A stretch of 33,172 bases of DNA from the NCBI GenBank assembly GCA_947627925.1, contig CANQXW010000011.1, positions 1 through 33,172 of the forward strand, read 5' to 3'. Positions 16,734-19,315 of the stretch are shown here, piece by piece. The notes below the pieces were generated by a model. It saw nothing but the letters and a program-made list of their open reading frames with translations, ran no database searches and was not told the origin of the DNA. Both the position numbers and the translations under genes were made by a program. Each line of letters opens with the position of its first letter. Positions within the stretch are counted from its first letter, which is position 1. This DNA comes from an uncultured Bacilli bacterium (GTDB lineage Bacteria; Bacillota_I; Bacilli_A; RF39; UBA660).

Positions 16734-16751
16734 AATGGCGAAAAAGCCATT
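16734..16751 (-). terminator. Intrinsic terminator of pgk
   Basis: Minus strand AATGGC-TTTTTC-GCCATTTTTT; stem overlaps the pgk stop codon. Confidence 0.75.
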
Positions 16752-17913
16752 AGTTTTGAATCTCATTTTCCATAATAAATTCTAGAGCTTTAAGTTTGCC
16801 ATCAGCCACATATTCTAAAGTAGCACCCCCACCACTAGAAACATAGGCAAATTTATCTTTGTAGTTAAATTTAGCTACTGCTGAAGCGGTATCGCCACCT
16901 CCAACAAAAACTTTGGCCTCACTCTTACTAAGAGTATCGAAAAGATTTTTCGTTCCTTTCGTATATTCTTCTCTTTCATATAGGCCAGGAGTACCGTTTA
17001 AGAAAATAACTTTAGCCGATTCTACTACTTCTTTAACTTTATCATTAATAATATTATCATAAATAATATCATTATCTTTTATATCATGAATATCAACTTC
17101 TAGATTATTATTTCCTCTTTTTACCGTAAACATGGAGCTAAAAACTATTTTAGAAGCGCTTTCTGTTATAATTTTTTTCACACTTTCTAAAACTTCTTCA
17201 TCACTACTAGCTAAACTATCCCCAATAGGATATTTCATAACTTTTAAGAAAGTATTTAAAATGCCTCCCGTTAAAATTAATTTATCACATTTTTTTAGCA
17301 TGCCTTCAATTATTTTTATTTTATCATCTACTTTAGCTCCGCCCATTATAACTACAAAAGGGTAATCATCATTATCGATTAAGGGTTTTAAGCTTTCAAT
17401 TTCTTTTTCCACTAAAAAGCCTAAAAAGGTCGGCAAATATTTAGAAATACCCGCAGTTGAAGAATGAGCACGATGTAAAGAGGCAAAAGCATCAATCACA
17501 AAAGCATCAGCAAAACTAGCCCAATATTTTGCCAGCTCTAAATCATTAGCGCTTTCTCTTTTTTCTGGTACATCAGTGTATCTCGTATTTTCCACTAAAA
17601 ATAACTTTTTAGAACTATTATTTACAACAGTTAAATCTAAAGGATTACTAATAAATTCTAAATCAAAATATTTCTTTAAATATTCATAAACTATTTTTAA
17701 ACTATTTTTAGTTTTATCTTCTTCGCCCTTTACTCTACCAAAATGACTCAATAAAATAACCCTATTATTATTCTTTAATAAATAATTAATCGTATCTAAA
17801 CTTTTAGTTATTTTACTATCGTCACATATGTTACCATCTTTAATTGGTACGTTAAAATCACATCTTAATAATACTTTCTTATTTTCAATTTTTTCTTTAC
17901 TTAAATATTTCAT
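16750..17913 (-). CDS. pgk: Phosphoglycerate kinase
   Basis: KKVLLRCDFNVPIKDG..LLSHFGRVKG..VIMGGAKVDDKI..VGGGDTASAV. Confidence 0.97.
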   Translation of the reverse strand: MKYLSKEKIENKKVLLRCDFNVPIKDGNICDDSKITKSLDTINYLLKNNNRVILLSHFGRVKGEEDKTKNSLKIVYEYLKKYFDLEFISNPLDLTVVNNSSKKLFLVENTRYTDVPEKRESANDLELAKYWASFADAFVIDAFASLHRAHSSTAGISKYLPTFLGFLVEKEIESLKPLIDNDDYPFVVIMGGAKVDDKIKIIEGMLKKCDKLILTGGILNTFLKVMKYPIGDSLASSDEEVLESVKKIITESASKIVFSSMFTVKRGNNNLEVDIHDIKDNDIIYDNIINDKVKEVVESAKVIFLNGTPGLYEREEYTKGTKNLFDTLSKSEAKVFVGGGDTASAVAKFNYKDKFAYVSSGGGATLEYVADGKLKALEFIMENEIQN

Positions 17914-17944
17914 AATTAACTCCTATTGTCTTTCTATTAATTTC

Positions 17945-17973
17945 TTGTATTATTTACGATATTGTAATATAAT
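17945..17973 (+). promoter_or_regulatory. Consensus sigma-A promoter driving a + strand antisense RNA
   Basis: TTGTAT (17945-17950), 17-nt spacer, TATAAT (17968-17973). Confidence 0.7.
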
Positions 17974-17979
17974 ATGTAT

Positions 17980-18065
17980 AGGAAGCGTGAATTCACGCCG
18001 CCTACTTATCGTAGTTGACGTTATCTAAATAATATTTCTATTATTTGGACGACGTCTTTTATTTT
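17980..18065 (+). ncRNA. Candidate antisense RNA (type I antitoxin-like), about 80-85 nt
   Basis: Starts about 7 nt after the TATAAT; contains GCGTG-AATT-CACGC and CTAC-TTATC-GTAG hairpins and ends in an intrinsic terminator; fully overlaps the 3' part of the minus-strand 38-aa ORF. Confidence 0.6.
18017..18065 (+). terminator. Intrinsic terminator of the candidate antisense RNA
   Basis: GACGTTATCTAAATAATA-TTTC-TATTATTTGGACGACGTC (one A:C mismatch, two G:U) followed by TTTTATTTT. Confidence 0.75.
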
Positions 18066-18137
18066 ATCCACTAACATAGTTAGTAGTAAAAGTAAAATAA
18101 TTAAAACTAATACTCTCGTTAGATTTCTTAATTTCAA
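18021..18137 (-). CDS. Small hydrophobic peptide, candidate type I toxin (38 aa, TTG start)
   Basis: (M)KLRNLTRVLVLIILLLLLTMLVDKIKDVVQIIEILFR*; SD AGGAGGTGAGG 9 nt upstream; absent from the ORF track because of length. Confidence 0.65.
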   Translation of the reverse strand: MKLRNLTRVLVLIILLLLLTMLVDKIKDVVQIIEILFR

Positions 18138-18213
18138 ATAGCCTCACCTCCTTAACCAGAGATTCCCCCTGAAATTTGGTTTTGGCGGCGTCTTTCACTC
18201 ATCCTATATTTTC

Positions 18214-18242
18214 ATTTAAACACAATGTTATCTACTTGTAAA
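18214..18242 (-). promoter_or_regulatory. Candidate promoter of the small-peptide mRNA
   Basis: Minus strand TTTACA (18237-18242), 17-nt spacer, TTAAAT (18214-18219). Confidence 0.4.
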
Positions 18243-18266
18243 GAAAAATATGCGGACATTATAAAA

Positions 18267-18310: not shown

Positions 18311-19315
18311 TTACTTAAACATACATTTTGCCGTTCTAAGCATTTGAGCAGTATATCCTAATTCATTATCATACCAAGCTACTATTTTATAAAGTTTTTG
18401 CCCATTTACTTCCACCACATTAGTAAGAAGACCATCGACTAAAGCGCCAACTCTTTTACCAATTATATCACTAGAAACAATTGGATCTTTAGTAAATTTT
18501 AAAGCCTCACTTTGATGGGTCACAAAAGTATTATTAATTTCATCAACGGATGGACTACTTTTTAACTCTAAAGTAACATCAATTAAAGAACCATCGGGAA
18601 CGGGTACTCGGTAAGCAAGACCATCAAGTCTTCCTTCCAGTTCAGGGATAACTTTACCAATGGCTGAGGCAGCCCCCGTTGAAGCGGGAATTATATTTTG
18701 ACTAGAAGCTCTTCCACGTCTAGCATATATTCCTTTTTTATGAGTAATATCTAAAGTTACTTGATCATTCGTAAAAGCATGTACAGTACTCATGAATCCT
18801 TTTTCAATACCATAAGCATCATTAATAACTTTTAAAACGGGGGCTAAACAATTAGTCGTACAACTCGCCGCTGAAACAATGTCTTCACTACCATCAAGAA
18901 TCCCTTCATTAACCCCATAAACTACCGTTTTCATATTACCTTTACCAGGTGCCGAAATTAAAACTTTTTTAGCTCCCGCTGTAATATGCTTTCTAGCATC
19001 TTCTTCTTTCGTAAATGCTCCCGTACATTCTAAAACTAAATCAACATTTAAATCTTTCCATGGCAAATTCAAAGGTTCTCTTTCCGCATAAACTTTAATT
19101 CTTTTGGTATTAGCAATTACCAAAGTATCGCCTTCAAAAGTTATCTCAGATTCATGGAAAGACCGATGAACTGTATCATATTTAAGTAAATGACATAACT
19201 CTTCCGCATTGGAAGTATCATTGATAGCCACAATATCAAAAGCACTATCCGTAATCATTTCCCTAAAAGCAATTCTTCCAATTCTTCCAAAACCATTAAT
19301 CGCAACTCTAATCAT
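18311..19315 (-). CDS. gapA: Glyceraldehyde-3-phosphate dehydrogenase
   Basis: VAINGFGRIGR..SAASCTTNCLAPV..WYDNELGYTAQML. Confidence 0.97.
   Translation of the reverse strand: MIRVAINGFGRIGRIAFREMITDSAFDIVAINDTSNAEELCHLLKYDTVHRSFHESEITFEGDTLVIANTKRIKVYAEREPLNLPWKDLNVDLVLECTGAFTKEEDARKHITAGAKKVLISAPGKGNMKTVVYGVNEGILDGSEDIVSAASCTTNCLAPVLKVINDAYGIEKGFMSTVHAFTNDQVTLDITHKKGIYARRGRASSQNIIPASTGAASAIGKVIPELEGRLDGLAYRVPVPDGSLIDVTLELKSSPSVDEINNTFVTHQSEALKFTKDPIVSSDIIGKRVGALVDGLLTNVVEVNGQKLYKIVAWYDNELGYTAQMLRTAKCMFK

What the first reader, a model, noticed from the sequence alone, without database searches (positions are those of the whole stretch)
17995..18191. Long-distance 5'-3' complementarity in the putative toxin mRNA
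Near the predicted mRNA 5' end (minus strand, 18191-18184) is ACGCCGCC; in the 3' UTR (18002-17995) is its exact complement GGCGGCGT. These are among the few GC-rich stretches in this AT-rich intergenic region. Such 5'-3' pairing holds type I toxin mRNAs (e.g. hok, aapA) in a translation-inactive form. The antisense RNA carries the same ACGCCGCC sequence and so could compete for, or pair with, the 3' element.
Basis: partly seen in the sequence, partly recalled or inferred. Interest (0 to 1): 0.7.

Follow-up and report, generated by a model that had tools for sequence, protein, structure and literature searches.

The report
Toxin-like mRNA with paired ends
A tiny membrane-peptide gene from rabbit-gut bacteria makes an mRNA whose two ends pair with each other; over 100 related copies kept that pairing while changing its letters, and the same 5' element can also cover the ribosome-binding site, so it looks like a switch that an antisense RNA could flip.

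Summary
The octamers are exact and at the stated coordinates. They are the core of a 5'-3' helix that covers nearly the whole 5' leader. The mRNA encodes a 38-aa hydrophobic peptide between gap and pgk. I collected about 130 relatives from one genus of uncultured rabbit-gut Bacilli. On a structure-blind alignment of 33 diverged members, RNAalifold chose exactly this octamer helix: 98.1% of cells paired, 7 of 8 pairs with compensatory double changes, 0 of 500 shuffles as good. G-U outnumbers A-C mismatches 51 to 6, which points to selection on mRNA-sense RNA, not on a DNA repeat. A convergent antisense promoter and a covarying antisense-terminator hairpin inside the ORF are also conserved, so the locus is type I toxin-antitoxin-like. 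Toxicity is untested.

The pairing is real, but models do not show it shutting the mRNA. The 5' element also complements the Shine-Dalgarno. Masking the 3' region, as the antisense would, raises the modelled cost of opening the SD from 5.2 to 7.2 kcal/mol (harder in 59 of 77 members; only slightly in the window's copy). I favour a switch in which antisense binding frees the 5' element to close the SD. The direction is inferred.

The parts
18237..18242 (-). mRNA promoter -35 TTTACA
   Evidence: Sequence; TTTACA at this place in 59 of 77 members, mostly 17-nt spacer
18214..18219 (-). mRNA promoter -10 TTAAAT; predicted start about 18207
   Evidence: TTTAAT/TTAAAT/TATAAT in 72 of 77 members, mostly 6-10 nt before the 5' arm
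18184..18204 (-). 5' arm of the long-distance helix (GGATGAGTGAAAGACGCCGCC)
   Evidence: Duplex and fold; pair counts
18184..18191 (-). E5 octamer ACGCCGCC: pairs with E3; alternatively pairs with the SD region
   Evidence: Covariation with E3; SD complementarity
18165..18169 (-). GGGGG of the conserved CAGGGGG motif in the 5' UTR, role unknown
   Evidence: Positions 36-40 of the first sequence almost invariant in A2; absent in one subfamily
18144..18153 (-). Shine-Dalgarno AAGGAGGTGA
   Evidence: conserved
18021..18137 (-). ORF, TTG start, 38-aa hydrophobic peptide MKLRNLTRVLVLIILLLLLTMLVDKIKDVVQIIEILFR
   Evidence: codon-position constraint in the N-terminal half
17995..18002 (-). E3 octamer GGCGGCGT, partner of E5
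17981..18002 (-). 3' arm; also forms the local hairpin GCGTG-AATT-CACGC (17998-17985)
   Evidence: 5 of 5 pairs with double changes
17945..17950 (+). Antisense promoter -35 TTGTAT
   Evidence: TTG-type -35 in most members
17968..17973 (+). Antisense promoter -10 TATAAT; predicted start about 17980
   Evidence: TATACT/TATAAT in 67 of 77 members
17980..18068 (+). Predicted antisense (antitoxin) RNA: 5' hairpin, then a terminator hairpin and T-rich tail (TCTTTTATTTTA)
   Evidence: Fold z = -5.7; terminator hairpin covaries
18017..18056 (+). Antisense terminator hairpin, inside and just after the 3' half of the ORF
18244..18260 (-). AATGTCCGCATATTTTT motif just upstream of the mRNA -35, possible operator
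   Evidence: 14 sites in the genome, 0 for the reversed control pattern

Best explanation
This is a type I toxin-antitoxin-like module. SHOWN by comparison: the mRNA for a 38-aa single-helix membrane peptide has 5' and 3' ends that pair with each other, and this pairing is under strong selection as RNA. A convergent antisense RNA of about 90 nt is encoded over the 3' half of the ORF and the 3' UTR. Its 5' end resembles the mRNA 5' leader, so it is a perfect partner for the mRNA 3' arm, whereas the mRNA leader is an imperfect one (G-U pairs and an internal loop). INFERRED: the 5' octamer E5 has two competing partners, the 3' element E3 and the Shine-Dalgarno. [quoted passage not shown] In the finished mRNA, E3 captures E5 and the SD becomes more accessible. 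When the antisense RNA is present it displaces E5 from E3, so E5 returns to the SD and translation stops; the long duplex is presumably also cut by RNase III. Toxicity of the peptide is assumed from its form and arrangement, not shown.
For: Helix: RNAalifold on a structure-blind MAFFT alignment predicts exactly E5:E3. 98.1% of cells pair, 7 of 8 pairs have double changes, 0 of 500 shuffles reach this, slid registers give 18-48%. Own 5'/3' partners beat cross partners, z = -10.5. In the octamer G-U exceeds A-C mismatches 51:6. Diverged relatives in another genus of the family keep end pairing (GGAAGCA with TGCTTCC) with otherwise different letters. Family: roughly 140-150 matches in the genus with the peptide profile and with the RNA model, 133 distinct ORFs compiled. 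Antisense: promoter, terminator covariation, fold z = -5.7. Switch: E5-SD pairing is stronger than with reversed controls (p = 0.004 and 0.0004). SD opening cost is 5.2 in the full-length mRNA against 7.2 kcal/mol with the antisense region masked, harder in 59 of 77 members. The effect drops from 1.92 to 0.60 kcal/mol when E5 is scrambled with E3 kept complementary (p = 0.002). Precedents: SR4 binding at the 3' end lengthens the SD stem of bsrG (PMC4147584); TimR breaks a pseudoknot that timP needs for translation (PMC11228461).
Against: No expression, toxicity or probing data exist for these uncultured bacteria. In the window's own copy the modelled effect is small (4.66 to 5.05 kcal/mol), and mean SD pairing moves the other way (0.19 to 0.34 unpaired). 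The diverged relatives in the other genus hide the SD in a local hairpin whatever the ends do. The SD is mostly paired even in the full-length models (0.33 unpaired). Folding models ignore kinetics, ribosomes and proteins. Members are related, so counts of compensatory changes are not independent events.
Confidence: 0.5

Rival explanations
1. Hok/AapA polarity: the 5'-3' helix keeps the full-length mRNA translationally inert, and trimming of the 3' end activates it; the antisense RNA then removes the activated or leaking mRNA.
For: Established for hok and aapA, where a 5'-3' interaction makes the primary transcript inactive (PMC6733600, PMC8167048). The helix here is very stable (22.5 kcal/mol to free the 3' arm). 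The nascent-stage anti-SD pairing also resembles aapA3 metastable hairpins.
Against: In models, removing or masking the 3' arm makes the SD less, not more, accessible in most members. E3 does not itself pair with the SD.
Confidence: 0.25
2. The helix is real but mainly protects the mRNA ends or shapes antisense recognition (kissing of the 3' hairpin loop, strand invasion), and repression is simply duplex formation and decay, as for TxpA/RatA.
For: The antisense is fully complementary to about 90 nt of the mRNA; the 3' hairpin and antisense 5' hairpin are conserved; a G-run motif of unknown role is conserved.
Against: Does not explain the specific E5-SD complementarity.
Confidence: 0.2
3. DNA-level inverted repeat only: a mobile cassette with terminal inverted repeats, or two binding sites for one regulator, with no RNA role for the pairing.
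For: Both ends share promoter-proximal sequence; the cassette sits in a gap-pgk junction that is only 67-91 bp in many relatives and is multicopy and tandem elsewhere.
Against: G-U over A-C asymmetry of 51:6 in mRNA sense; the letters of the two arms are repeatedly replaced while pairing is kept.
Confidence: 0.04
4. Chance complementarity in a short GC-rich stretch.
For: None beyond the shortness of the octamer in one genome.
Confidence: 0.01

Closest known systems
aapA/IsoA (Helicobacter type I toxin-antitoxin)
   Same: Multicopy family, small membrane toxin, 5'-3' long-distance interaction in the mRNA, cis-antisense RNA, nascent anti-SD structures (PMC6733600)
   Different: There the 3' end sequesters the SD region and 3' trimming activates. 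Here E3 pairs with a 5' octamer that is itself an anti-SD, and losing E3 is predicted to close the SD. The antisense here overlaps the 3' half of the mRNA
bsrG/SR4 and txpA/RatA (Bacillus)
   Same: Antisense overlaps the toxin mRNA 3' end; in bsrG, antitoxin binding at the 3' end lengthens the stem that hides the SD (PMC4147584)
   Different: No recognisable sequence similarity (Pfam, NCBIfam); here a covarying 5'-3' helix links the 3' end to the leader
fst/par of pAD1
   Same: Convergent RNAs, short hydrophobic toxin, repeats at the 5' ends of both RNAs
   Different: par has direct repeats that make the two RNAs complementary (PMC4147584, PMC8167048). Here the repeats are inverted, so both RNAs begin alike and the mRNA pairs with itself
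timP/TimR
   Same: Long-range RNA structure linked to translation and undone by the antitoxin (PMC11228461)
   Different: A pseudoknot between stem-loops SL1 and SL3 rather than a 5'-3' helix; enterobacterial; no similarity seen
hok/Sok
   Different: Long leader with a mok reading frame; Sok acts in the leader; 3' processing activates (PMC4147584)

Membership tests
Type I toxin-antitoxin (general) | Short hydrophobic, membrane-spanning peptide | tested here: met
   38 aa, positive N-terminus, about 15-residue hydrophobic core, by inspection of sequence and family alignment
Type I toxin-antitoxin (general) | Antisense RNA gene overlapping the toxin mRNA | tested here: met
   Conserved convergent promoter, 5' hairpin and terminator by sequence and covariation only; transcript itself not seen
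Type I toxin-antitoxin (general) | Peptide is toxic and the RNA neutralises it | not testable with these tools
   Needs expression in a laboratory strain
aapA/IsoA | 5'-3' long-distance interaction in the toxin mRNA | tested here: met
aapA/IsoA | The interaction itself makes the SD less accessible | tested here: not met
   Model only: SD opening cost is lower with the helix than without
hok/Sok | Antisense complementary to the 5' leader | tested here: not met
   Predicted antisense covers the ORF 3' half and 3' UTR, 17980-18068
hok/Sok | Translationally coupled leader reading frame | tested here: inconclusive
   No consistent upstream frame seen by eye among members
fst/par | Direct repeats at the 5' ends of both RNAs | tested here: not met
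   Repeats are inverted
fst/par, txpA/bsrG | Sequence similarity to the family's toxin | tested here: not met
   No such Pfam or NCBIfam family hit; HMMs are weak for peptides this short
bsrG/SR4 | Antitoxin pairing at the 3' end increases SD sequestration | tested here: inconclusive
   Predicted in 59 of 77 members, small in the window copy; needs probing

The most novel reading that the evidence does not exclude
A Gram-positive type I module in which the mRNA 5' leader imitates the antitoxin's own 5' end. That leader is an anti-SD which the mRNA's 3' end captures to permit translation. The antitoxin, being the better partner of the 3' end, displaces the leader and so switches translation off at a distance: a 5'-3' interaction with polarity opposite to hok and aapA.
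Probability: 0.4. Interest if true: 0.78.

Novelty: new variant of a known kind. Interest (0 to 1): 0.6.

Why it matters
5'-3' long-distance interactions in type I toxin mRNAs are described for hok and for aapA in Gram-negative bacteria; I found none described for Gram-positive systems in the library searched. Here 38 distinct natural octamer pairs show that one such helix is kept by compensatory change. They also suggest how a 3'-overlapping antitoxin could control a distant SD, an effect reported for bsrG/SR4. The natural variants make the switch directly testable in laboratory hosts.

Tried and rejected
Chance match: rejected by covariation. DNA-only inverted repeat: disfavoured by the G-U/A-C asymmetry. 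Membership in known families: Pfam, NCBIfam and Rfam gave nothing. Hits of the peptide profile outside the genus were mostly chance matches inside long frames and were dropped; the RNA model found real but diverged relatives in one other genus. A leader peptide starting after the G-run: no consistent frame. Pairing of E5 with the G-run region: no clear signal. Phage and plasmid searches found no match, but the low-complexity filter may hide such peptides.

Full report
What is there. The window comes from a small AT-rich genome; the closest named relatives of its gap gene are uncultured Bacilli from rabbit-gut ('Lapin') metagenomes. The finding lies between gap (18311-19315, minus) and pgk (16750-17913, minus). 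The minus strand holds a promoter, a leader, a strong Shine-Dalgarno and a TTG-started 38-aa hydrophobic peptide. No Rfam, Pfam or NCBIfam family fits.

The observation. The two octamers are exact complements at the stated places. They sit inside a longer near-complementarity: 18204-18184 against 18002-17981. The whole transcript 18207-17978 folds with z = -7.3, and both MFE and centroid contain the end-to-end helix. The 3' arm can alternatively form a local hairpin, GCGTG-AATT-CACGC.

Relatives. A peptide profile finds matches in 33 of 38 genomes of the genus, up to 16 per genome and often in tandem; an RNA model of the 3' region finds members in 24 of 38. Fetching the loci gave 133 distinct ORFs before a quality cut. 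The N-terminal half of the ORF shows coding constraint by codon position; the C-terminal half does not, as expected where the antisense terminator overlaps. The gap-pgk junction is only 67-91 bp in many relatives, so the cassette was probably gained there in this lineage. Diverged tandem relatives exist in one other genus.

Covariation. 5' arms and 3' arms were aligned separately, without using structure. Among 38 distinct octamer pairs, 238 cells are Watson-Crick, 51 G-U, 6 A-C and 9 other. Since G-U is tolerated only when read as mRNA-sense RNA, this asymmetry argues for RNA pairing over a DNA repeat. A MAFFT alignment of 33 diverged mRNAs given to RNAalifold returned the same octamer helix. 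Pair counting gave 98.1% paired cells, 35 cells changed on both sides against 9.8 in shuffles, and 18-48% paired when slid. The outer helix is weaker, 78% paired. The local 3' hairpin and the antisense terminator hairpin also covary. An alignment-free test of own against swapped partners gave z = -10.5. These counts are not phylogenetically independent, but changes recur in different lineages and letters.

The antisense RNA. On the plus strand, TTGTAT-17-TATAAT precedes 17980, and a T-rich tail (TCTTTTATTTTA) follows a hairpin ending near 18056; the RNA folds with z = -5.7. Convergent promoters are conserved in 77 members. The antisense 5' end resembles the mRNA leader, so the locus ends are inverted repeats; in par of pAD1 they are direct repeats (PMC8167048). 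Sense terminators occur about 60-100 nt past the 3' arm in 25 of 75 loci (1 in shuffles), but none was found before pgk in the window.

How it may work. E5 is also complementary to the SD region: own -10.2, reversed E5 -7.6, reversed SD -7.3 kcal/mol. In models, full-length mRNA pairs E5 with the 3' arm (0.79). With the antisense region masked, E5 moves to the SD (0.34) and the SD is less open. SD opening costs 5.20 in full length, 7.22 antisense-bound and 7.08 kcal/mol with the 3' arm masked. Scrambling E5 while keeping E5:E3 complementary removes most of the effect. This suggests a switch with antitoxin-dependent closing, similar in outcome to bsrG/SR4 (PMC4147584) and in logic to timP/TimR (PMC11228461), and opposite in polarity to hok and aapA (PMC6733600). 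For the window's own copy the modelled effect is small, and the other-genus relatives use a fixed SD hairpin, so the direction remains an inference.

Verdict. This is a new family and a new variant of a known kind.

Noticed in passing
window 18244-18260 (-) and 13 other places in the same genome: AATGTCCGCATAWTTTT lies directly before the -35 of the toxin promoter and of several other promoters; 14 sites against 0 for the reversed control. Other members carry TGTCG-type motifs in the same area (53 of 108 against 5 in shuffles). Possible operator of an unknown regulator.
   Followed up: partly
L003, L004, L008 (G000 contigs C15, C5, C10): Three pairs of sites 171-172 bp apart where that motif is followed by a sigma-70-type promoter and a GC-rich hairpin RNA (GGGCTGGTCGTGGC...GCTGCGGTCGATCCTTTTT); no Rfam match. 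An unknown multicopy small RNA.
   Followed up: partly
window 17914-17981 (-): No sense terminator between the toxin 3' arm and pgk, unlike a third of the relatives, so the toxin promoter may read into pgk.
   Followed up: no
L174, L175 (gap-pgk junction of relatives): In two relatives other members or remnants of the same family lie beside gap in other arrangements, so the junction may be a recurrent insertion place.
   Followed up: no
subfamily around L155, L157, L163, L166, L167: These members lack the CAGGGGG leader motif and have quite different leaders, yet keep strong 5'-3' complementarity.
   Followed up: partly
window 18165-18169 (-): The G-run of the CAGGGGG leader motif is nearly invariant in the main subfamily; its role is unexplained.
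   Followed up: partly
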